Assembly: GCA_003169975.1 (NCBI GenBank)
Contig: PNAA01000035.1
Coordinates: forward strand, 577-64,576
Length of the DNA stretch: 64,000 bases
Origin: Spartobacteria bacterium
GTDB taxonomy: Bacteria; Verrucomicrobiota; Verrucomicrobiia; Chthoniobacterales; UBA10450
Direction: 5' to 3'
Part shown: positions 1 to 33,286 of the stretch, piece by piece
How positions within the stretch are numbered: position 1 is the first letter of the stretch
How the letters are laid out: each line of letters opens with the position of its first letter
Notes under the pieces: generated by a model
Seen by the model: only the letters and a program-made list of their open reading frames with translations
Told to the model about the DNA's origin: nothing
Databases searched by the model: none
Position numbers and translations under genes: made by a program

Positions 1-317
<317 letters not shown>

Positions 318-2758: not shown

Positions 2759-2863
2759 TGTAGCCGGGGTCGCTGCCCCCGACCGAGGGACGCCGAATGT
2801 TCCGAGGTTTTTAAAATCGCCCTGGGCGTTTGGACCGGCCGGGATCAGCGATCTCGGCTACAA
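2759..2863. repeat. Extragenic palindromic repeat, GTAGCCGGGGTC type
   Basis: The left arm starts TTGTAGCCGGGGTCGCTG and the right arm ends CAGCGATCTCGGCTACA, roughly its reverse complement. The element fills the divergent gap between thrC and the symporter gene. A second copy is at 10560-10698. Confidence 0.75.
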
Positions 2864-4341: not shown

Positions 4342-5750
4342 GTGATCGCGCCGCCCGCTGTCGCTCCAAGTCACCGAAAGCCGTCTTTTTGGGGCGCTCG
4401 GTGGAGCGCTTTTCGTTTTCCGATTAACGGCGAGAAACAGGCGCTCCTTCGCGACCGCTGGAATTCGTTGCTGCCCGAACTGCGGACGCCGAACCAACTG
4501 GCCGGTCGCCATCTCACCCACTGCGGATTCACCACCGGCGCGAGCTATTGCTCGTTCCGTTGTACGCACTGCTATCTTCCGGACAACGCCAATGAGGTAC
4601 CGATTCCGTCGCTCGCCCGGATGCAGGAGCAGATCGACGCCAACCGTCGTTTCCAAGGTCCCGGTGGCGGATTGCAGATTACCGGCGGCGATGTGGCCGA
4701 TGCGTATTGGCGCACCGGGCGGCAGAGTGAACTGGTCGAAGTCGTGCGCTACGCCGTGGGCGTCGGACTCGTGCCCATGCTCATGGCGCACGGTCAAACG
4801 CTGCTCGAGCACCCGGAATTTCTTGAAGCTCTCGTGATCGATGGCGGCCTTCGCCAGGTCGCGGTCCACATCGATATGACGCAGGCCGGTCGTCACGGTT
4901 TTCTCATTGGCCGCATCAAAAGCGAAAGCGACCTGCACCCGATGCGCGAAGCGTTCACGCAACTGGCCCAGGATATTCGGGAACGCACCGGGGTGCCGCT
5001 GGAGCTGGCGCACAACTGCACCGTCACCGAGAGGAACATCGCTTCGGTCCCCGAGGTCGTGCGCTGGTTCCTGGCCGATCCCGCGCGATCGCGGATCTGG
5101 CGCATCCTGAGTTTCCAGCCGGAGGCAAATACCGGTCGGACGATTTTTTCTCGGAACCCGGTGACGCCCGTTGGTGTCTGGCAAAAGATTTGCGATGGCA
5201 TGGGGCTGAAACTGGATGGAAGCGCCTATCTCGGCGGTCATCCGGATTGCAATCAAGGCACGACGCTCCTGGTCGAGCGGAGGCGGGTCGTTACCTGCCG
5301 CTTTTGCCTAACGACGTAAAAACGAAGCGACTTTTTGCCGAGATCCTGGCCACGCTCGGAGCGATCTCCACCATGACGACCGACGCCGACGCGGGAGCAT
5401 CCTTGTTGCCCTATCGGGTGGCGGGCGCCTTCTCGCGTCATCCGCAGCTCGCCCTCCGCAGCCTGGCGCGCATCCTGGCGCTGGTCGCGTCCGGCCAAAT
5501 ACCATGGGTTTTTCTTTGCGCCCTCGTCACCGGCCGCGCGCAAACGATCAATATCGGCACGCACAATTTCATGGATGCGAGCCGGGTCGCGAATGCGCCT
5601 AACGATACCGTGACTCGGGCCCGCCTCGATGCCTGCGTCTTCAAGGGCGCGGTCAAGAATCGCGCGACCGGAGAATGGGAGGCGGTCCCAATGTGTTCGA
5701 TGAATCAAGCGCGCTGGAGTGAGCTCTACGCGGAGCGGCTGGCTGGGTAG
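4342..5750 (+). pseudogene. Radical SAM protein, interrupted by a -1 frameshift
   Basis: The first part (4342-5319) has a radical SAM cluster motif CSFRCTHC (CxxxCxxC) after HLTHCGFTTGASY, then a barrel-like stretch with LQITGGD. It runs into a stop at 5317-5319. The natural continuation, GRYLPLLPND and about 150 further residues, is in the next frame and ends at TAG 5748-5750. The total of 1409 nt is one short of a multiple of three, so one base appears to be missing near 5275-5290. No partner gene shows the substrate. It is either a real null allele or an assembly error. The stop codon lies in a palindromic repeat. Confidence 0.75.
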
Positions 5751-5893
5751 CGCACGCATCTTGCGTGCTGGCGACGGTGTTCCACCGTCGCGAACTTTCC
5801 GAAAAGGTCCGTCATCCCCGGATGGCTCGTGGCGAGAAAAGTCCGTCGCGGCGGGACGCCGCGACCAGCACGCGAGACGCGTGCGCTACCCAG
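5743..5893. repeat. Extragenic palindromic repeat, GGGTAGCGCACGC type
   Basis: About 150 bp with inverted arms of roughly 60 bp: the left begins CTGGGTAGCGCACGC, the right ends GCGTGCGCTACCCAG. The centre differs between the arms. It lies between convergent genes and its left end contains the TAG stop codon of the radical SAM gene. Confidence 0.85.
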
Positions 5894-5907
5894 GTCCCAC
5901 CGCGGCA

Positions 5908-7362
5908 CTATTTCACTTTCACCAGATCCGCGCGATTCAGGTCGAGATCTTTTTGCTCGATTACTTTGACGTCCGGGAAACCTTTTTTGAGCGCATCGAG
6001 GAAATCCGCGGCTTGGCCGACAACCACCAGGCTCGTCGGCGTCGCGAGAGATTTCCGGGCGAATTCGGTCACCGCCTCGCCGGTCACAGCATTGATCGCA
6101 GGAATGTACTTATCCAGCGTAGCGAGCGGTAAGTCGTAGGTCGCGAGATCGGAAATCTCGGAAACAAACCCCTGGTTCGTTTCGAGGCCGCGCGCGTAGC
6201 GACCGATCAGGACGGCCTGGCGCGATTTCAGTTCGTCGCCTTTTACCGGCTCGCTCACCAGCCGTTTCAGCTCCGCTTCAATCAATCCTGCAACTTCCGC
6301 CGCCGATTCGTTTTTCGTCTGCGCAGAAGCGCTGAACGGGCCCGCCTCGCGTCGGGGATCGAGCGAGCTGCCGGCGCCGTAACTGAGGCCGCGTTTGATC
6401 CGGATCTCGCGATTGAGGCGCGAGACAAAGCCGTTGCCAAGGGCGGCGTTGGCCACCAGCGCGGCATAATAATCCGGCGCCGTGCGCTGGATCGCCGGCT
6501 TGGCCACCGTGACGGCCGCCTGGCCCGCTTCGGGCATGTCAACCACGACATTTTCCGGCTTCCAATCCGACGCGCCGGAAGGACGCTGATCGTTAGGCGA
6601 AGCCGGGCCGGCTTTCCAATCGCCAAAGAATTTTTCAGCGAAAACCTTTCCTTGTTCGAGCGTCACATCGCCCGCGAGAATAAAAGCGGCGTTCTGCGGG
6701 ACGTAATATTTTTGGTAAAGCTGCACGATCTGGTTGCGGTCGATCGCCTGCAGCGTTTCCAGCGTGCCGCCCGCCGCGTGCCCGTAGGCGCCCGCTCCGT
6801 AGACGACCCGCTCGGTGACGAACCGCGCCAGCGACCCGGGTTGTTGCAATGCGACGCGCAGGCCATCGAGTCGCTGGCTCTTCAATCGATCGATCTCCTC
6901 CTGCTTGAAGGCCGGATGGCGCACTACGTCGGCCAGGATTTTCAGGGCCTCCTCGGCTTTGTCCGACATCACGGCCACGCTGGCCGCCGATGCGTCCCAG
7001 CCCACGCCGGAATCAATCGAGCCGCCTAACGATTCGATGGCGCGGGCAATTTCGGGAGCCGACATCGTTTCGGTTCCCTTGGTCAACAGCGAGCCGGTTA
7101 TGCTCGCCGTCCCGGCCAGACCATCGGGGTCGACCTCGGCGCCGGTGCGCACCACGACCTGCGCGGCGAGGAGCGGAAGGTCCGAGCGTTCCACCACGAT
7201 CACGCGCAATCCATTTTCCAGTCTCGTTTCCTTCGGCGTCGCGAACTTCGTCTCGTGCGTCGCGGAAGGCGCCGGCGCCGTGTCGACCCCGCCGATCGCC
7301 CAGGCGGATTGGAGAGTCGTCAGGCAGACTGTTGCCGCGAGCAAATTGACCGGGGCTTTCAT
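5908..7362 (-). CDS. M16 family zinc-peptidase homologue, non-catalytic partner
   Basis: A 484-residue protein with an N-terminal signal peptide (MKAPVNLLAATVCLTTLQSAWA), then two M16 domains: LENGLRVIVVERSDLPL near residue 50 and the C-terminal substrate-binding signature RGLSYGAGS. The catalytic HxxEH motif is missing; the equivalent place reads GTASITGSLLTKGT. Bacterial M16 pairs commonly have one catalytic and one non-catalytic chain forming a periplasmic heterodimer, and the upstream gene supplies the catalytic one. Start and stop overlap as TGATG at 7360-7364, so the two are translationally coupled. Confidence 0.88.
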   Translation of the reverse strand: MKAPVNLLAATVCLTTLQSAWAIGGVDTAPAPSATHETKFATPKETRLENGLRVIVVERSDLPLLAAQVVVRTGAEVDPDGLAGTASITGSLLTKGTETMSAPEIARAIESLGGSIDSGVGWDASAASVAVMSDKAEEALKILADVVRHPAFKQEEIDRLKSQRLDGLRVALQQPGSLARFVTERVVYGAGAYGHAAGGTLETLQAIDRNQIVQLYQKYYVPQNAAFILAGDVTLEQGKVFAEKFFGDWKAGPASPNDQRPSGASDWKPENVVVDMPEAGQAAVTVAKPAIQRTAPDYYAALVANAALGNGFVSRLNREIRIKRGLSYGAGSSLDPRREAGPFSASAQTKNESAAEVAGLIEAELKRLVSEPVKGDELKSRQAVLIGRYARGLETNQGFVSEISDLATYDLPLATLDKYIPAINAVTGEAVTEFARKSLATPTSLVVVGQAADFLDALKKGFPDVKVIEQKDLDLNRADLVKVK

Positions 7363-8771
7363 CAGGACTTCTTTGCCTCCTTCGCCGGTTTCGCGGCCTT
7401 CATCGATTCCGGGAGATATTCGAGCACGACTTTTTTCTTGCCGGACAGATATCGGCCCAGGACTTCCTTGATCTCTGGAGCGGTCACGGCCTGGAGCTTG
7501 GCCAGGTCGGTGTTCACGCGGTTCGGGTCACCGTAGATCACCGCCGCCTCGCCGAGCGCACTGGCCTTGCCATTATCGGTCTCGCGCTCCAGCAGCTTGC
7601 CGGTGAGGAACCGATTCTTCGCTTTTTCCAGTTCGGCCGCCGTGACGCCGGTTTGCAAAATCTTATCGATCTGCTCGTGCAGTGCTTTGAGGGCATCCGC
7701 GGGCGATTTTCCGCTCGCCAGGATCATCCGCAGTGTGAGCAGGCCGAGATCCTGGTTCAAATCCGCATCGAACGAGGCGCGTTGCGCGATCTGTTGCTCG
7801 TAAACGAGCGATTGATAAAGTCGGGATGACTCCCCGCCGGAAAGGATTTCATCCGCCAATTGCAGCGCCGGGGCGTCGGCGCTCCGGATCGAGGGCGCGA
7901 GATAAGTGACTGCAATCGCCGGGAGCGGTGCCTTCGGGCTGTATTCGACGATCTGCCTGTCTTCCTTGCGTGGCGGTTCTTTGGCGGTCACGCGCGGGAT
8001 TTTCCCGGCCGGTTTCTTGATCGCGCCGAAATATTTTTCCACCCAGCCGTGCAATTCGTTAGGCTGAAAATCGCCCACCACTACGAGGGTCGCATTGTCC
8101 GGCCGGTAAAACGTCGCATGAAAGGCGCGTACCTCGGGCAGTTTCGACGCGTCCAGCTCCGCGATATTGCCGATTCCCGGGCGCTTGTAGGGGTGCACCG
8201 TGTAGGAATTTTTGAGCGTGTTGAGATAAAATTCCCCGTACGGATTGGCCAGAATCCGCTGGCGATATTCCTCCTTCACCACGTCGCGCTCCGAATTGAA
8301 ATTGGCCTCGTTCAGCGCGAGGGACGACATCCGCTCGGCTTCCGCCCAAAGGATCGGTTGGAGATAATTCGAAGGCACGACTTCGTGATAAACCGTCACG
8401 TCCGCCGCGGTGTAGGCGTTGTTTTCCCCGCCGATATTCTCGGTCAGGTTGTCGAAGGTGTCGGGCGTCAGGTGCTCGTTCCCCTTGAACATCATATGCT
8501 CGAACAAGTGCGCGAACCCGCTGCGCTGCGCGGGATCGTCCTTCGAGCCGACGTGATACCACACCTGCACCGCCACCGTCGGGCTGGAATGATCTTCCAC
8601 CGAGTAAATCTCCAATCCGTTAGGCAACGTCTCGTGCTGGAACGGCAACGGCGGAACCGAAACCGCCGGTTTGGCCGCTTCCGGGTCAGCCGCCTGGACG
8701 AGGAGAACGGGCGCGCAGAGAAGCGTGCAGAGGGCGAGAGAAAATTTCACCACAGGTTCGACACCATACAT
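7362..8771 (-). CDS. M16 family zinc metallopeptidase, catalytic chain
   Basis: About 469 residues with a signal peptide ending near LLVQA. The inverted zinc motif HLFEH stands in GFAHLFEHMMFKG, and the downstream glutamate is in NAYTAADVTVYHE/ERDVVKEEY, as in pitrilysin/processing-peptidase-like enzymes. It probably degrades or processes peptides in the periplasm together with the next gene. The frame is open to 8825, but ATG 8771 puts the signal peptide close to the N-terminus. It is divergent from tRNA-Ile. Confidence 0.88.
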   Translation of the reverse strand: MYGVEPVVKFSLALCTLLCAPVLLVQAADPEAAKPAVSVPPLPFQHETLPNGLEIYSVEDHSSPTVAVQVWYHVGSKDDPAQRSGFAHLFEHMMFKGNEHLTPDTFDNLTENIGGENNAYTAADVTVYHEVVPSNYLQPILWAEAERMSSLALNEANFNSERDVVKEEYRQRILANPYGEFYLNTLKNSYTVHPYKRPGIGNIAELDASKLPEVRAFHATFYRPDNATLVVVGDFQPNELHGWVEKYFGAIKKPAGKIPRVTAKEPPRKEDRQIVEYSPKAPLPAIAVTYLAPSIRSADAPALQLADEILSGGESSRLYQSLVYEQQIAQRASFDADLNQDLGLLTLRMILASGKSPADALKALHEQIDKILQTGVTAAELEKAKNRFLTGKLLERETDNGKASALGEAAVIYGDPNRVNTDLAKLQAVTAPEIKEVLGRYLSGKKKVVLEYLPESMKAAKPAKEAKKS

Positions 8772-8847
8772 GACGCTTCGTTGAGAAGAAGTGGAATCGC
8801 GGTTGCGCGCGGGGTCACTTTCCATTAATAAAACGTTCCGTTTTCGC

Positions 8848-8921
8848 GGGCCTGTAGCTCAGTTGGTTAGAGCATGCGCTTGATAAGCGCAGGGTCACTG
8901 GTTCGAGCCCAGTCAGGCCCA
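8848..8921 (+). tRNA. tRNA-Ile (anticodon GAT)
   Basis: A 74-nt cloverleaf: acceptor GGGCCTG pairs with CAGGCCC, D-arm TAGCTCAGTTGGTTAGAGC, anticodon loop TTGATAA (GAT), T-arm GGTTCGAGCC, discriminator A, no encoded CCA. In linked rRNA operons this tRNA sits next to tRNA-Ala; here it is isolated 8.4 kb away on the same strand. Confidence 0.96.
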
Positions 8922-8955
8922 TCCTTCGCTTTGAGCGCAGCGAAAAGTGAAGGAT
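8921..8955. repeat. Hairpin abutting tRNA-Ile
   Basis: ATCCTTCGCTTT at 8921-8932 is nearly complementary to AAAGTGAAGGAT at 8944-8955. It starts at the last base of the tRNA gene. It lacks a T-run but could define the 3' end; the rest of the gap up to 9086 has repeat-like CCGCCAAGGC fragments and no gene. Confidence 0.5.
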
Positions 8956-9086
8956 GCCACGCCGGAGTAAAACGCAGGTGGGCCGTGTTGATTACAGGAT
9001 TTCTCGGCGCTCAAAGACTTTAGCCTCCGCCAAGGCTACGGCTTAACGAGACGGCTTGGCAGGCCAGCCTTCGCATGGCTTTCCGG

Positions 9087-9512
9087 TTATCGACCGCCGA
9101 TGCCCCAGCGCAGCGCCAATCCGAGCAGGGCCCCGCAACTGTCGATCATCACGTCGGCTGACGACGAGCTGCGCGACGGGACGTAGCCTTGATGATATTC
9201 ATCCGTCGCGGCAAAAATGATCGCGACCAGCAAGGCAAACCAGGCTTGTGGCCACACGCCGCGGCGAACGCCGACCCGCTCCATCCGAAAGCCGCGCCAG
9301 AGCAGCACGGCGAGGATCGCGTATTCGATTAGATGCGCGCCCTTGCGGATCAGGAAATGAACCTGGCCGATCGTCGCCCAGGAAATATCGGGCTTCAGCC
9401 AAAGGAGGAACGGAACCAGGAAGCGGGATGTGTGTTCGGCGGAGAACAGATCAGTCGACGCCGTAAAGACGAGCGCCATCCAAAGCAGCACCGCCAGCCA
9501 GTATTTAAGCAC
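9087..9512 (-). CDS. VanZ-like integral membrane protein
   Basis: About 141 residues with four hydrophobic segments. VanZ-family features are the opening MALVFTASTDLFS, the central RKGAHLIEYAILAVLLWR, and the terminal ATDEYHQGYVPSRSSSSADVMIDSCGA (two parts). Its biochemical role is not established in general. No ATG fits the N-terminus; GTG at 9512 giving VLKYWLAVLLW is the likely start. The frame is open much further upstream only because it runs antisense to manA. Confidence 0.82.
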   Translation of the reverse strand: MLKYWLAVLLWMALVFTASTDLFSAEHTSRFLVPFLLWLKPDISWATIGQVHFLIRKGAHLIEYAILAVLLWRGFRMERVGVRRGVWPQAWFALLVAIIFAATDEYHQGYVPSRSSSSADVMIDSCGALLGLALRWGIGGR

Positions 9513-9593
9513 ATCGGAGAAGCGCAAGCCGAAAGCGTAATCTGCGGAGGGCGTCTGACAAACCCGGCGTCCCGGGTTAATCTCGCCGCCGGA

Positions 9594-10547
9594 ATGAGAC
9601 CTGAATTCCCGCCTCCGTTGGTCTTCGAGCCGCTTTTCATGGAGCGGATGTGGGGTGGGCGGCGCTTGGAGAGCGTTCTTGGCAAAAAGCTGCCGCCCGG
9701 CCAGCGCATCGGCGAATCGTGGGAAATCGTCGATCGGCCCGAAGCGCAGAGTGTCGTTAGGCAAGGGCCGTGGCGCGGGCGGACGCTGCACGAACTGTGG
9801 CGCGATCATCGGGACGAAATCTTCGGCGCCGAAATGCCGGATGCGCCGCGTTTCCCGATCTTTGCCAAGCTCCTCGATGCCGAGGAGAAGCTCTCGTTGC
9901 AGGTGCATCCGGGCGCCGCAGTCGCCGGGGCTCTCGGCGGCGAGCCGAAAACCGAGATGTGGTATTTTGCAGCCGCCGATGCGGGCGCGGAGATTTACGC
10001 CGGCTTGCGGCGCGGCGTGGAGCGGAACCGCTTCGAGCGGGCCCTCCGTGACGGCGCGGCGGCTGAGCTCGTGCACCGGATCGCGGTCAAAACGGGAGAC
10101 GCCTTCTTCGTCCCGAGTGGTCGGCTGCACGCCATTGGCGCGGGCAACCTGCTCATCGAGATCCAGCAGAACAGCGACACCACTTTTCGTCTCTTCGATT
10201 GGAACCGCGGTGAGCGCGCTGCGGCGCAGCGCCCGTTGCAGATCGAAAAAGCGCTGCAGTCGATCGACTTCCACGACTTCGAGCCGGAGCTGATTCGTCC
10301 GACCGGCGAGCGACTCGTGCAATGCCCGCATTTCGAGGTCGAGAAGTGGGAGCTAGACCGCGCCCGCCGCGCATCCGGACGGAACGCGTTTGCGCTCTTC
10401 GTCTGTCTCAGCGGCGCGCTGGAGGCGAATGCGGTGCGCATCGCGCCCGGCGAGTTTTTCCTCGTCCCTGCGAGCGCGGCCGCAACCGAATTGCAGTCGG
10501 CTGCGCCGGCGACCAGCGTGTTGCGTATCACCTTGCCGGTTCGTTAG
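9594..10547 (+). CDS. manA: Mannose-6-phosphate isomerase, type I (cupin)
   Basis: A 317-residue zinc enzyme interconverting fructose-6-phosphate and mannose-6-phosphate, the entry to GDP-mannose and surface glycans. The family pattern is clear: FMERMWGGRRL at the N-terminus, the zinc ligands in SLQVHPGA and KTEMWYF, and a third histidine in SGRLHAIGAGNLLIEIQQNSD. The length matches the short bacterial ManA. ATG 9594 is chosen because homology starts immediately after it; the open frame upstream overlaps the divergent VanZ gene. Confidence 0.92.
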   Translation: MRPEFPPPLVFEPLFMERMWGGRRLESVLGKKLPPGQRIGESWEIVDRPEAQSVVRQGPWRGRTLHELWRDHRDEIFGAEMPDAPRFPIFAKLLDAEEKLSLQVHPGAAVAGALGGEPKTEMWYFAAADAGAEIYAGLRRGVERNRFERALRDGAAAELVHRIAVKTGDAFFVPSGRLHAIGAGNLLIEIQQNSDTTFRLFDWNRGERAAAQRPLQIEKALQSIDFHDFEPELIRPTGERLVQCPHFEVEKWELDRARRASGRNAFALFVCLSGALEANAVRIAPGEFFLVPASAAATELQSAAPATSVLRITLPVR

Positions 10548-10559
10548 GGGGATTGTTCG

Positions 10560-10698
10560 GTAGCCGGGGTCGTTGACCCCCGGTGGAGGATGGCTCTCAA
10601 GAGCAAGGGCGACTCTCCCGTTTATGGCGCAACATTACCGCGTCCACGGGTTAACCTCCGGACCCTGCAGACCGGCCGGGGTCGGTGCCCCGGCTACA
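10560..10698. repeat. Extragenic palindromic repeat, GTAGCCGGGGTC type
   Basis: The left end is GTAGCCGGGGTCGTTGACC, the right end GGGGTCGGTGCCCCGGCTACA, with a dissimilar centre. It is the same family as 2759-2863. The right end overlaps the last codons of the minus-strand gene at 10694 and provides its TAG stop. Confidence 0.8.
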
Positions 10699-11152
10699 GG
10701 CGCAGCCCCGGCAGGCGCCGGACCGGCTGCGGGCCCAGCGGCTGGACGCCATCGATTTTCCAGCCATCCGGCTCGGCGGTAAAACTGTAAAGAAAGCCGC
10801 GCACCATGCCGTCAGGCGCGGTGAGGAAAACCTGGACCAGGGCCGCCGCGCCCGCCACGCGAACGGCGCCGAATTCCACATGCTCCGCCTCGGTCATCGG
10901 CGAAAAATCGCGCCGAATCATGAGCTCAAACTGGGAGCGCGAAAATTTTTGCTGCACCCCGGTGGCGGCGTGTCGATAGGCGCTGTCGAAATCGGCCGCG
11001 CGCAAATCGGAGAGCTGGTGGTTGACCAGGGAAAAAAGATCCCTCGTGGCCGGCGGCGGAGTCCTCTCGCGGGCAAAATGGGTCGCTAGGATCGACGCGC
11101 CGCAGAGGGCGAAGAAAAACCCGAGGAGCGAAATCTTGACCAGTCGATTCAT
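10694..11152 (-). CDS. DUF4864-like exported or membrane-anchored protein
   Basis: A 152-residue protein with one N-terminal hydrophobic segment (ISLLGFFFALCGASILA). The body, with VNHQLSDLRAADFDSAYRHAA, RSQFELMIRRDFSPM and a C-terminal SFTAEPDGWKIDGVQPL, resembles the DUF4864 group of small NTF2-like proteins. Function is unknown. The start is two bases after the DUF971 stop, inside the shared word GCCTAACG, so the two genes are co-transcribed. Its TAG stop lies in a palindromic repeat, so the last few residues may have been fixed by that insertion. Confidence 0.65.
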   Translation of the reverse strand: MNRLVKISLLGFFFALCGASILATHFARERTPPPATRDLFSLVNHQLSDLRAADFDSAYRHAATGVQQKFSRSQFELMIRRDFSPMTEAEHVEFGAVRVAGAAALVQVFLTAPDGMVRGFLYSFTAEPDGWKIDGVQPLGPQPVRRLPGLRL

Positions 11153-11154
11153 CG

Positions 11155-11466
11155 TTAGGCGGCACGCGCCGGGTCGATCCGGCGCAGATACTGATAAGTG
11201 TAGAGACCGGTATTATGCCCGTCGCCCCAGGTGGGCTGGAGCGCATAACCGCCGACGAGACTCCAGCCGCGGAGCTCAAAACTTTGGTCGGTGTAACTGA
11301 CACTGGGCCGAACGACTTCACCCATCACGTCCGGCTCGCCTCCGCAGGCCGCGCAGGGGCAGGCCGTGCGCAGGAAGCGGAGGGGCAGAAACGTTTCGCT
11401 CCCGTCATTCCATTGAATGGCGAGTTCGCTCCCGATCTGTTCGATGGTGGCCGGCTCGAAGCGCAC
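11155..11466 (-). CDS. DUF971 domain protein
   Basis: A 103-residue single-domain protein of the DUF971 fold, which is also found at the N-terminus of gamma-butyrobetaine hydroxylases and beside Mrp/ApbC ATPases. Typical features are the WNDGSETFLPLRFLRTACPCAAC segment (CPCAACGG), possibly metal binding, and the end YALQPTWGDGHNTGLYTYQYLR. It lies in a run with yggS upstream and the DUF4864-like gene downstream. Its TAA stop is part of the repeated word GCCTAACG. Confidence 0.85.
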   Translation of the reverse strand: MRFEPATIEQIGSELAIQWNDGSETFLPLRFLRTACPCAACGGEPDVMGEVVRPSVSYTDQSFELRGWSLVGGYALQPTWGDGHNTGLYTYQYLRRIDPARAA

Positions 11467-11504
11467 GCCAAACCCTAACAGGGTTCTAAGGTGCAGGGCA
11501 ACTC

Positions 11505-12218
11505 TCAGTCGCGTTTCGGCCGCGAGCGTTCGCCGAAAATCGCGGTGCCGACCCGCACCAGCGTCGCCCCTTCCTCGATCGCGATCGCAAAATCGCCGCT
11601 CATTCCCATCGAGAGCTGCGGCAACCGAACGTTGAACTCTCTTTCCAGTTGGTCACGCAGTTCGCGGAGGGCAACGAAATAACGGCGCGACGCTTCCGCT
11701 TCCGGCGAGAGCGGCGGGATCGTCATCAAGCCTTCGATGGTGAGTCTGCCTAACGAGAGGGTCGTTTCCAGGTCGCGCCGCAGCGGCTCCGGCGAAAAGC
11801 CATGCTTGCTCGCCTCACCGGCCAGATTCACCTCGAGCAGAATGCGCGGCCGCATTCCTTCCTCCTCGGCGATGCGATCCATGTCCTGCGCCAGCGCAAG
11901 CGAATCGATCCCGTGAAACAACTCGAAGAGTGGCAGGGCGTGTCGAATTTTATTTTTTTGGAGGTGCCCGATGAAATGCCAGCGCAACCGCGAGGGCAGA
12001 AGTGGAATTTTCGCGCGCGCTTCCTGCACCCGGCTTTCGCCAAAGAGCAGCTGGCCAGCCTCGACCGCCGCCTGCACCTTCTCCGCCGCGTGCGTCTTCG
12101 AGACCGCGACCAACTCGATCTCGTCCGGCGAACGGCCACACTTTTGCGCCGCCTCCGCGATTCGCGTTGCGATTCGCGCGAGGTTGGCCGCAATTTCTTC
12201 CATCGGCGAATTATTCAT
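11505..12218 (-). CDS. yggS: YggS/PLPBP family PLP-binding protein
   Basis: About 237 residues, an alanine-racemase-like barrel that binds pyridoxal phosphate and helps PLP homeostasis. The PLP lysine is in ELVAVSKTH; further signatures are [28 protein letters not shown] and [28 protein letters not shown] (several blocks). The frame is open to 12251, but MNNSP at 12218 or MEEIAANL at 12203 are better starts. It heads the yggS-DUF971-DUF4864 run and is divergent from the cytochrome gene. Confidence 0.92.
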
Positions 12219-12316
12219 CGCCCGACGACGGCGGCAAGCAATCTCCCGCAACGGCGGCCTTACCTTACCAATCGATTGGGGTTGAAAACTGGCTTCGCGC
12301 CCGATAAATCGTTGCC

Positions 12317-13578
12317 ATGCGTCGCGCCGTTGGGGTGTGCAGCTTACTCCTGCTTGCCGCGTCAGCGGTTATGCTCGTGACCGGAGGCGCCGCGGCGACT
12401 CGGAAGCCCACGCCCTTATGGCGAGCGCAGGTTCCAACGTGGTCGCAGGACGATCTCAATTTTTTTCTGCACGGTTCGATGGGGACGGAGATTTTTCCGG
12501 AACCGGTCCTGCGCGCGTTTTTCAAAACGTATCCGGAACTCTTTCCGACGACGGACCTGAGTCATCTTGGTCTGATTCCAGATCACGACTTCGGTTGGCC
12601 GATTGGCTTCAGTCGCACGCCCGCGGTCAAACACCTTGGCAATCTGCCGGCGGTTGGAATCAACTGCGCATCGTGCCACGTTTCGCAGATCACCTCCACG
12701 GCGGGCGGCGCCCCGATCCGCATTCTGGGTACGACGAGCCACTTCAATGTTGAAGCCTTTTTCGGCTCGGTGCTCGCGGCCACCTTCAAGACCACCGAGC
12801 CGGCGAACATGAAGAAATTTCTCGGCGCTTATCTCGGCGCGAGCCGGCCGACGTTTGAGGCGGCGTGGAGCAGGCAGGAGGAAAAAATTACTGCGGCGAT
12901 GAAGGCCGATCCGTTGGGCGCAAATGACATCGCGCCCGGCGAATTGCACGCGATCGCAAACGCCGACCTCCAGCCGCCATTCGACGCCGACACCGATCTG
13001 GCGTCGCGCGCCCATGCGATGCTGCAACTTTTCCATAATATTCGCGCGGTACTGCATGTGCCGGACCAGCCGCCGGACAAACCGCCGCCCGCTTCCGGTC
13101 CGGGCCGAAACGACGCCTTTGGGTTGTTGTCCGCCGCGCTGCTCCATTCGCCGGCGTATGCGCCGATTAAGTTCGGTTTGGTTTGGAATGTGGATCGACG
13201 CACCTGGGTGCATTGGGACGGCAACACCCGCTCGCCGAGCTGGAGCTGAAAGGCTATACGCCGCCGCAGGAATTTGGCGTGCGGAGCACGGGAAAATATT
13301 TCGCCGCATCCCTCGGCGGCGTGTGGGCGCGCTCACCTTATTTGCACAACGGGTCGGTGCGCACGCTTCAGGAATTGCTCACCCCGCCGGCGCAACGTGC
13401 CAAGACTTTTCATCGCGGCTCGCGGCGCTTCGATCCCACGCAGATGGGCTTCACCGATGAAGGCGCCTATCTTCTCGACACCACCACGCCCGGCAACGCC
13501 AATTCCGGGCACGACTACGGGACGAGACTCTCCGCTGCGGAGAAAGCGGAACTCATCGAGTATCTGAAGACGCTGTAG
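12317..13578 (+). pseudogene. Cytochrome c peroxidase-like exported haem protein, frameshifted
   Basis: The N-terminus has a signal peptide (VCSLLLLAASAVMLVTGGAAA). A haem-binding CASCH follows in VGINCASCHVSQ. The reading frame stops at 13247-13249 after VHWDGNTRSP, and the expected continuation (ELELKGYTPPQEFGV, then SPYLHNGSVRTLQELL, the C-terminal signature of this family) is in the next frame, ending at TAG 13576-13578. The span of 1262 nt is one base short of whole codons. A base was probably lost near TCGCCGAG at about 13230-13240. It is a null allele or a sequencing error. It likely acted in periplasmic electron transfer. Confidence 0.78.
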
Positions 13579-13678
13579 ACGCTTCGCTCTGCGAAGCGTG
13601 GGCGGAAACCGCATTCGTTCTCAATCGCCCTTCCTTCACGGCGTCCATTCCCGCGCCGCCTAGAGGGCGGCGTCTACA
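13574..13678. repeat. Extragenic palindromic repeat, TGTAGACGC type
   Basis: The left end is TGTAGACGCTTCGC and the right end GGGCGGCGTCTACA. It fills the gap between two convergent genes. The TAG in each terminal TGTAG is the stop codon of the gene running into it: 13576-13578 on the plus strand and 13674-13676 on the minus strand. Confidence 0.85.
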
Positions 13679-14312
13679 ATTGCCGAATCTGCGGCACGTC
13701 GAGAATCCGGATTTGCTCGGGCGGATTTTCCACCGCCCAAACTAGCGCGCGCACCATTTGCTTGATCGTGATCAGCCCGAGGCGTTGCGCCGGCTCCCTC
13801 GTCTGCGGGATTCGTTCCAGGATCCAGTAAACCGGCAGAAGCGCGTAGGGCCACCAATGCCCGGGCCCGAGGACATACCATGGCCTAACGAACGTCGCCG
13901 GCACACCGCTGGCGCGAATCATCGCTTCGCCTTCCATGCGGACGGCGATGAACGCTTTCATCGCGCGCGCCGGATGGGCCACGCTCAGGTACACAAAATG
14001 CCGCACTCCGGCGTCACGCGCGGCCTTCGCCGCGACCACCACCGAAACCAGATCGATTTCCTGGAACTGCTTCGCCTTCGCCGGGCTTGGATGTGGCGTG
14101 CCGATCAAATGGACGAAGGTGTCGGCCGGGGAAATCTCTTTTGTGTAGGAATCCATCTGCAACGGATCACCCGACAATCGGCCCGCGCCGGGCGGCAGTT
14201 TGCCCTGCGATGGCTGCCGCACGAGCGCCTTCACCCGATGTCCCCGCGCGAGAAGCGCGGGAATTAAGCGCGATCCAATGTAGCCCGTGCCGCCGGTGAC
14301 AAAGACATTCAT
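13674..14312 (-). CDS. NAD(P)-binding Rossmann protein (atypical SDR, NmrA/NDUFA9-like)
   Basis: A 212-residue extended-SDR-like protein. The nucleotide motif GGTGYIGSRL (residues 7-16) and LVRQPSQGKLP suggest NADP binding; DTFVHLIGTPHPS and HFVYLSVAHPARAM follow. The usual YxxxK catalytic pair is not evident, as in atypical SDRs. Substrate unknown. The start overlaps the DUF72 stop by ATGA (14309-14312), so it is the last gene of the minus-strand run and ends in a palindromic repeat. Confidence 0.8.
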   Translation of the reverse strand: MNVFVTGGTGYIGSRLIPALLARGHRVKALVRQPSQGKLPPGAGRLSGDPLQMDSYTKEISPADTFVHLIGTPHPSPAKAKQFQEIDLVSVVVAAKAARDAGVRHFVYLSVAHPARAMKAFIAVRMEGEAMIRASGVPATFVRPWYVLGPGHWWPYALLPVYWILERIPQTREPAQRLGLITIKQMVRALVWAVENPPEQIRILDVPQIRQL

Positions 14313-26647: not shown

Positions 26648-26727
26648 CGGCGGACGTGCTTCCGCACGTCCGAATTTGTCATTGCCGGCTGCTCTTTGGA
26701 TCGGGGACGTGCGGAAGCACTTCCCTC
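26648..26727. repeat. Extragenic palindromic repeat, GGACGTGCGGAAGC type
   Basis: The left part GGACGTGCTTCCGCACGTCC is itself a hairpin, and the right part GGGACGTGCGGAAGCAC is its inverted near-copy. It fills the gap between two minus-strand genes. Confidence 0.75.
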
Positions 26728-33194: not shown

Positions 33195-33286
33195 GTCATC
33201 CCGAGCGGGAGCGCAGCGCAGTCGAGGGATCCCGTCGCGAAGCCTTAGGTAACTCCACGGGATCCCTCGACTGCGCTCGGGATGAC
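33195..33286. repeat. Extragenic palindromic repeat, GTCATCCCGAGCG type
   Basis: GTCATCCCGAGCG...CAGTCGAGGGATCCCGT on the left is mirrored by ACGGGATCCCTCGACTG...CGGGATGAC on the right. A near-perfect stem of about 40 bp is possible. It lies between two minus-strand genes. Confidence 0.88.

What the first reader, a model, noticed from the sequence alone, without database searches (positions are those of the whole stretch)
5743..13678. Palindromic repeats supply the stop codons of four genes
The TAG in the terminal (T)GTAG of a palindrome is the stop codon at 5748-5750 (radical SAM), 10694-10696 (DUF4864-like), 13576-13578 (cytochrome) and 13674-13676 (SDR). At 13574-13678 both ends of one element end two convergent genes. 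This is not chance placement: either elements insert at stop codons, or selection keeps those whose end terminates the frame, perhaps as bidirectional terminators.
Basis: seen in the sequence. Interest (0 to 1): 0.58.

Follow-up and report, generated by a model that had tools for sequence, protein, structure and literature searches.

The report
Mobile palindromes that double as stop codons
Short mobile DNA palindromes in a soil-type bacterium very often sit exactly at the end of a gene so that their own first letters serve as the gene's stop signal; this was already noted in print, but here it is counted, shown not to be chance, and found missing in a sample of E. coli.

Summary
The TAG of a GTAG-tagged palindrome is the stop codon at all four places named, and one element ends two convergent genes. 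The elements are REP/REPIN repeats (GTAG tag plus hairpin, mostly head-to-head pairs). The genome holds REP-type Y1 transposases (RAYTs) flanked by two of the REP families.

In 2.02 of 4.47 Mb, 44 of 47 genes that read into a tag use its TAG in frame (one third expected; p about 5e-18). In related species it is 13 of 13.

Purifying selection explains much of this. The other frames would mostly add tails of about 50 codons; the three out-of-frame cases are all in family C, and two of them stop within the REP after four codons.

Selection does not explain everything. Most stop-supplying elements sit where relatives also end the gene, roughly 15-fold more often than at nearby downstream sites. 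The cause (targeting or retention) is open. Terminator function is unsupported. E. coli K-12 shows none in 85 units.

That GTAG REPs "often provide" the TAG stop was published in 2013 (PMC3733652). Known kind, new member; the counts and the excess at the stop are new.

The parts
5747..5889 (.). Family-B REPIN (head-to-head GTAG REP pair); left tag TAG 5748-5750 is the stop of ORF 5190-5750
   Evidence: RNA fold z -8.3; ends match the RAYT-bearing element in recG
5748..5750 (+). stop codon of radical-SAM-type gene (C-terminal ORF), supplied by the REP tag; protein 9-14 residues shorter than in its four closest relatives
10560..10697 (.). Family-C-type REPIN; minus-strand tag is a stop, plus-strand tag lies 16 nt past the stop of the ORF ending at 10547
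10694..10696 (-). stop codon of DUF4864 gene (10694-11152, -) supplied by the REP tag; same C-terminal length as in most relatives
13575..13677 (.). Family-A REPIN whose two tags end two convergent genes
13576..13578 (+). stop codon of RoxA-like cytochrome c gene (C-terminal ORF 13183-13578); C-terminus YLKTL same length in relatives
13674..13676 (-). stop codon of NAD(P)-binding SDR/epimerase-like gene 13674-14312 (-); same length as closest relative
2759..2863 (.). fourth REPIN of the window (family-C type), between divergent genes, not a stop: counter-example

Best explanation
These are GTAG-tagged REP palindromes, mostly as head-to-head pairs (REPINs), of at least five sequence families, presumably spread by the genome's RAYT (Y1, HuH) transposases. 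The tag GTAG is needed by such transposases (known for other RAYTs), so every copy begins, read from either side, with an amber codon. When a copy lands at the very end of a gene, only the frame in which TAG is read leaves the protein intact or slightly shortened. The other two frames usually run through the element and add about 50 or more foreign residues, so those insertions are purged. The result is that nearly every gene that reads into an element stops at its tag, and a pair between convergent genes can stop both. Shown: identity as GTAG REPs, RAYTs flanked by families A and B, the in-frame excess, the long alternative tails, the near-absence of out-of-frame cases. Inferred: RAYT mobility, and selection as the filter. 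Unresolved: why copies sit exactly on the pre-existing stop position much more often than on nearby downstream sites.
For: REP units by family: A 101, B 36, C 56, D 12, E 14 in 2.02 Mb; scrambled bodies 0. Whole genome: 66 matches to the family-B pattern and 139 to a family-A pattern, reversed-pattern control 0. D = stop position minus tag T: 44 at D=0, 3 at 1..60, 1 at 61..250, 1 at -5..-1, 40 at -30..-6. Other species: 13 at D=0, none at D 1 to 250, of 84 units. Out-of-frame tails in median codons: A 50 and 53, B 57.5 and 95.5, C 54.5 and 4, D 67 and 4, E 48 and 54.5. The three read-throughs are all family C, two of them stopping at D=13 in the four-codon frame; C 3 of 7 against A 0 of 32, p 0.004. 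RAYTs: NF047646 103.2 bits (cut-off 80) between family-A REPs next to thyA; 75.4 bits (below cut-off) between family-B tags inside recG; the recG element shares its ends with the window's family-B REPIN.
Against: Purifying selection alone predicts about 1.3 zero-length cases at the ancestral stop, where about 18-22 are inferred. If random in-frame insertion were the rule, truncations should dominate; only 5 of 15 stop-supplying genes are shorter than their best relative. No empty site at single-base resolution was obtained. No RAYT was tied to families C, D or E. E. coli REPs carry the same tag but show no stop use in 500 kb, so the tag by itself is not sufficient.
Confidence: 0.72

Rival explanations
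1. Targeted insertion: the transposase prefers the sequence or state at stop codons (for example a pyrimidine-T in the last codon followed by the stop), so copies land exactly there and the host's coding sequence is untouched.
For: 8 of 15 stop-supplying genes end at the same residue as their best relative, as ordinary genes do (115 of 220). The density at the last codon is roughly 15 times that at downstream pyrimidine-T sites. In ten zero-length cases the relative's last codon is NTN in seven, against 264 of 1556 genes (relatives read; background; p 0.0003).
Against: If pre-existing GTAG were the target, the ratio of D=0 to D -30..-6 should resemble that of other GTAGs (147:30); it is 44:40. 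No remnant of the old stop appears in the first nine bases right of 30 paired elements, apart from one at offset 5. It does not explain the 5 truncated cases or the lack of out-of-frame cases.
Confidence: 0.2
2. Retention: insertions at and near stops are equally frequent, but a copy that supplies the stop cannot be deleted without losing it, so those copies outlive the others (lock-in).
For: Stop-supplying REPs recur at the same gene in relatives (NifS-like L201; L447 and own C13; L403 and L434). Family-A units at D=0 are slightly more diverged (mean 2.03 mismatches against 1.74 near and 1.44 far).
Against: The divergence difference is not significant (p 0.21), nor is the pairing difference (30 of 44 against 120 of 162, p 0.45).
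Confidence: 0.25
3. The elements act as bidirectional transcription terminators and are selected at gene ends for that.
For: Strong hairpins (z -2.4 to -8.3) and an excess between convergent genes: 29 of 75 REPINs against 154 of 963 intergenic gaps of 60 nt or more.
Against: Terminator-like sites 14 against 15.0 expected, none with a T-run after an element end. The spike is exactly at D=0, with no rise from -30 to -6, which a terminator would not need. The convergent excess also follows from insertion tolerance.
Confidence: 0.07
4. Chance placement.
For: None after counting.
Against: 44 of 47 against one third, p 5e-18; 13 of 13 in other species, p 6e-7.
Confidence: 0.01

Closest known systems
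GTAG REP superfamily (Di Nocera et al. 2013, PMC3733652; abstract and sections 5 and 15 read, passages elsewhere)
   Same: GTAG tag, 6-9 bp stems, head-to-head dimers, location at 3' ends and between convergent genes, REPs inside uvrA; [quoted passage not shown] it is amber). Verrucomicrobia (O. terrae) are named as rich in GTAG repeats.
   Different: That paper gives no frame count, no orthologue comparison and no rate at the stop in the parts read; its supplements were not read.
REPINs of Pseudomonas (Bertels and Rainey 2011, PMC3116915; passages seen)
   Same: inverted REP pair as the mobile unit, associated with a RAYT
   Different: different sequences; the term 'stop codon' does not occur in its main text
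TnpA-REP / REPtrons of E. coli, S. maltophilia and Marinomonas (PMC8266576; passages seen)
   Same: GTAG needed for processing; cleavage at CT next to the REP. Here a T precedes the tag in 173 of 219 units, as CT or TT in 161.
   Different: biochemistry not tested here
E. coli REPs within 15 nt of stops (Liang et al.; seen only as described in passages of PMC12306157)
   Same: stop-proximal REP hairpins that may reduce translation
   Different: in 500 kb of E. coli K-12 none of 85 units supplies the stop

Membership tests
GTAG REP superfamily | short palindrome with unpaired GTAG at one end | tested here: met
   GTAG exact in 219 units, 23 further units with a degenerate tag
GTAG REP superfamily | high copy number, dispersed in the genome | tested here: met
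   219 units in 2.02 Mb; 66 and 139 genome-wide matches for two patterns, control 0
GTAG REP superfamily | head-to-head dimers | tested here: met
   31 HH against 2 TT in the first sample; 70 HH dimers in the larger one
REPIN/RAYT system | RAYT gene (Y1 HuH transposase) in the same genome, flanked by the same REPs | tested here: met
   family A: NF047646 103.2 bits, flanked by A REPs; family B: 75.4 bits (below cut-off 80) between B tags
REPIN/RAYT system | a cognate RAYT for families C, D and E | tested here: inconclusive
   11 Y1_Tnp matches in the genome; seven of the eleven loci showed no GTAG hairpin nearby, and C, D or E was matched to none
REPIN/RAYT system | transposition or cleavage activity | not testable with these tools
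   needs an assay
intrinsic terminator | hairpin followed by a T-run | tested here: not met
   14 sites, 15.0 expected; none follows an element end

The most novel reading that the evidence does not exclude
In this verrucomicrobial lineage the RAYT/REPIN system inserts preferentially into the last codon of genes, so that its tag replaces the host stop codon without altering the protein: a mobile element that uses stop codons as its landing site and replaces them with its own.
Probability: 0.2. Interest if true: 0.7.

Novelty: new member of a known kind. Interest (0 to 1): 0.42.

Why it matters
It turns a one-sentence remark in the REP literature into numbers: 44 of 519 TAG stops in the sampled genome are supplied by a recognisable mobile element. 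It gives a clean natural filter for insertion frame, a possible lock-in route by which a selfish repeat becomes indispensable, and a quantitative excess at the stop that a RAYT assay could explain. It also means that removing REPs in silico or at the bench would remove stop codons.

Tried and rejected
Chance, terminators and pre-existing GTAG as the sole target were tested and rejected or weakened. Stop remnants right of the element were looked for and not found, apart from one. Age (divergence from consensus) and loss of the partner REP as signs of retention: no significant difference. Empty sites at base resolution: the nearest relatives are too diverged downstream of the stop. Rfam found only rRNA and tRNA in the window. 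Literature: seven searches; beyond PMC3733652 no paper on REP tags as stops appeared in the listings, which is no proof of absence since most subscription papers are not held.

Rows dropped: 23 REP units with a degenerate tag were left out of the 219 (seven lie near a gene end, none at D=0). The tag at 10697 missed the family seeds and is not among the 44. One unit at D=203 was left out of the 47. Of 109 stretches reported, loci L374-L453 (80) were used. could compare 15 of 44 stop-supplying genes; eight of these 15 were queries of my own choice, so the set is not random. The seven-of-ten NTN count was compiled by hand and mixes the window's genome with other species.
Full report
WHAT IS THERE. 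Each is the TAG of GTAG at the foot of a hairpin. The hairpins pair head-to-head: 5747-5889, 10560-10697, 13575-13677 and a fourth at 2759-2863 that supplies no stop. A plain scan for GTAG plus palindrome gave ten hits in the window against 1 to 4 in five shuffles; six of the ten are the ends of the first three pairs. In 829 kb the units fell into sequence families, here called A to E, in 31 head-to-head and 2 tail-to-tail pairs. Whole-genome pattern searches gave 66 family-B and 139 family-A matches, reversed patterns 0.

TRANSPOSASES. The genome has 11 matches to Y1_Tnp. One HuH gene between family-A REPs, just downstream of a thyA whose stop is itself a REP tag, scores 103.2 bits with NCBIfam NF047646 (REP-associated tyrosine transposase, cut-off 80). 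A second sits between family-B tags inside the recG frame (gene name from its sequence, recalled) and scores 75.4 bits, below the cut-off. The ends of that second element align with the window's family-B REPIN over about 50 bases on each side, so family-B REPINs look like its internally deleted relatives (inference).

IS IT MORE THAN CHANCE. Gene ends were called with a codon model that knows nothing of REPs. D is the position of the stop codon's first base minus that of the T of the tag. Of 219 units with an exact tag in 2,020,182 bases: 44 at D=0, 3 at 1..60, 1 at 61..250, 9 deeper in genes, 1 at -5..-1, 40 at -30..-6, 16 at -80..-31, 105 with no gene end nearby on that strand. Among genes that read into the tag, 44 of 47 have it in frame (p 5e-18 against one third). 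In 84 family-A units from other Verrucomicrobia records (titles: Spartobacteria, Chthoniobacterales, Candidatus Udaeobacter and others), 13 are at D=0, none at 1..250, 27 at -30..-6. Four of 70 head-to-head pairs end a gene on both sides, the window's 13575-13677 among them. I infer that the window's own genome, which is unnamed, belongs to this group.

WHY IN FRAME. Read in the other two frames, families A, B and E give tails of about 50 to 95 codons (medians); C and D give about 54 to 67 in one frame and 4 in the other. The three out-of-frame cases are all family C, two of them in the four-codon frame (D=13). At the density of downstream pyrimidine-T sites, about 28 out-of-frame cases would be expected if tolerated, and 3 are seen; in-frame shortening of 2-15 codons would give about 24, and about 11 are inferred. 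This fits purging of long foreign tails.

WHAT SELECTION DOES NOT EXPLAIN. Fifteen of the 44 stop-supplying genes had a relative at 58-97% identity among the fetched loci. Eight end at the same residue, two are one residue longer, five are 1 to 14 residues shorter; ordinary genes give 33 of 67 (TAG) and 82 of 153 (other stops) at the same residue. Two of the eight relatives themselves end in GTAG plus a hairpin. ThyA ends at the same residue in all 30 loci compared; the cytochrome ends in YLKT plus one residue in eight of the nine loci listed; the window's radical-SAM protein is 9-14 residues shorter than its four closest relatives. So the element usually sits on the old stop. The expected number of such zero-length cases at the downstream rate is 1.3, against about 18 to 22 inferred (33 units with pyrimidine-T before the tag, times 8/15 to 10/15). 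This estimate rests on small numbers and on treating today's unoccupied genes as the ancestral state. Pre-existing GTAG as sole target fails on the ratio test (44:40 against 147:30). Retention is possible but its two tests were not significant.

HOW GENERAL. In 500 kb of E. coli K-12, 85 REP units gave no stop use and 9 at -30..-6, against 44:40 here (p 0.003). E. coli rarely uses TAG (20 of 416 genes, against 519 of 1666 here), which may be cause or consequence. In relatives of this genome, stop-supplying REPs of other sequence occur at other genes, for example at Lnt (L179), RluB (L228), a NifS-like gene (L201) and a radical-SAM gene (L365) (gene names are my own reading of the sequences).

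WHAT IS KNOWN. Di Nocera et al. 2013 (PMC3733652) described the GTAG superfamily, its head-to-head dimers, its location at 3' ends and between convergent genes, its presence in Verrucomicrobia and inside uvrA, and stated that GTAG termini often provide the TAG stop. The tag's role in RAYT cleavage at CT is in PMC8266576. So the phenomenon is known. What I did not find in print in searches is the frame count, the tail-length explanation, the orthologue comparison or the excess at the stop.

VERDICT. Real, strongly non-random, a new member of a known kind. The remaining puzzle, the excess exactly at the old stop, is testable.

Noticed in passing
L009 (own genome, C5 about 349116-349727): A RAYT-type transposase flanked by family-B REP tags lies inside recG in one uninterrupted 899-codon frame, so RecG would carry a transposase as an insert.
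   Followed up: partly
own genome C18:20433-26319 (-): A 1961-residue UvrA-like ORF contains two inserts that read like translated family-B REPINs, like the REP-bearing uvrA genes reported for O. terrae.
   Followed up: no
window 4342-5750 and 12317-13578: Two of the four REP-ended genes are split by a frameshift upstream of the element, while relatives have a single frame: pseudogenes or assembly errors.
   Followed up: partly
L356, L365, L371 and window 5747: One radical-SAM gene family has stop-supplying palindromes of different sequence in several species and, in degenerate form, in a paralogue of this genome.
   Followed up: partly
window 26652-26724: Another near-perfect palindrome family (GGACGTGCTTCCGCACGTCC type) without a GTAG tag; similar sequence lies between the convergent genes of relative L143/L344.
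   Followed up: no
window 33215-33277: A 21-nt perfect inverted repeat containing GTCGAGGGATCCC; similar letters appear downstream of genes in relatives such as L117.
   Followed up: no
window 1-123, 394-466, 8848-8921: 3' end of a 16S rRNA gene at the window's start and two tRNA genes.
   Followed up: no
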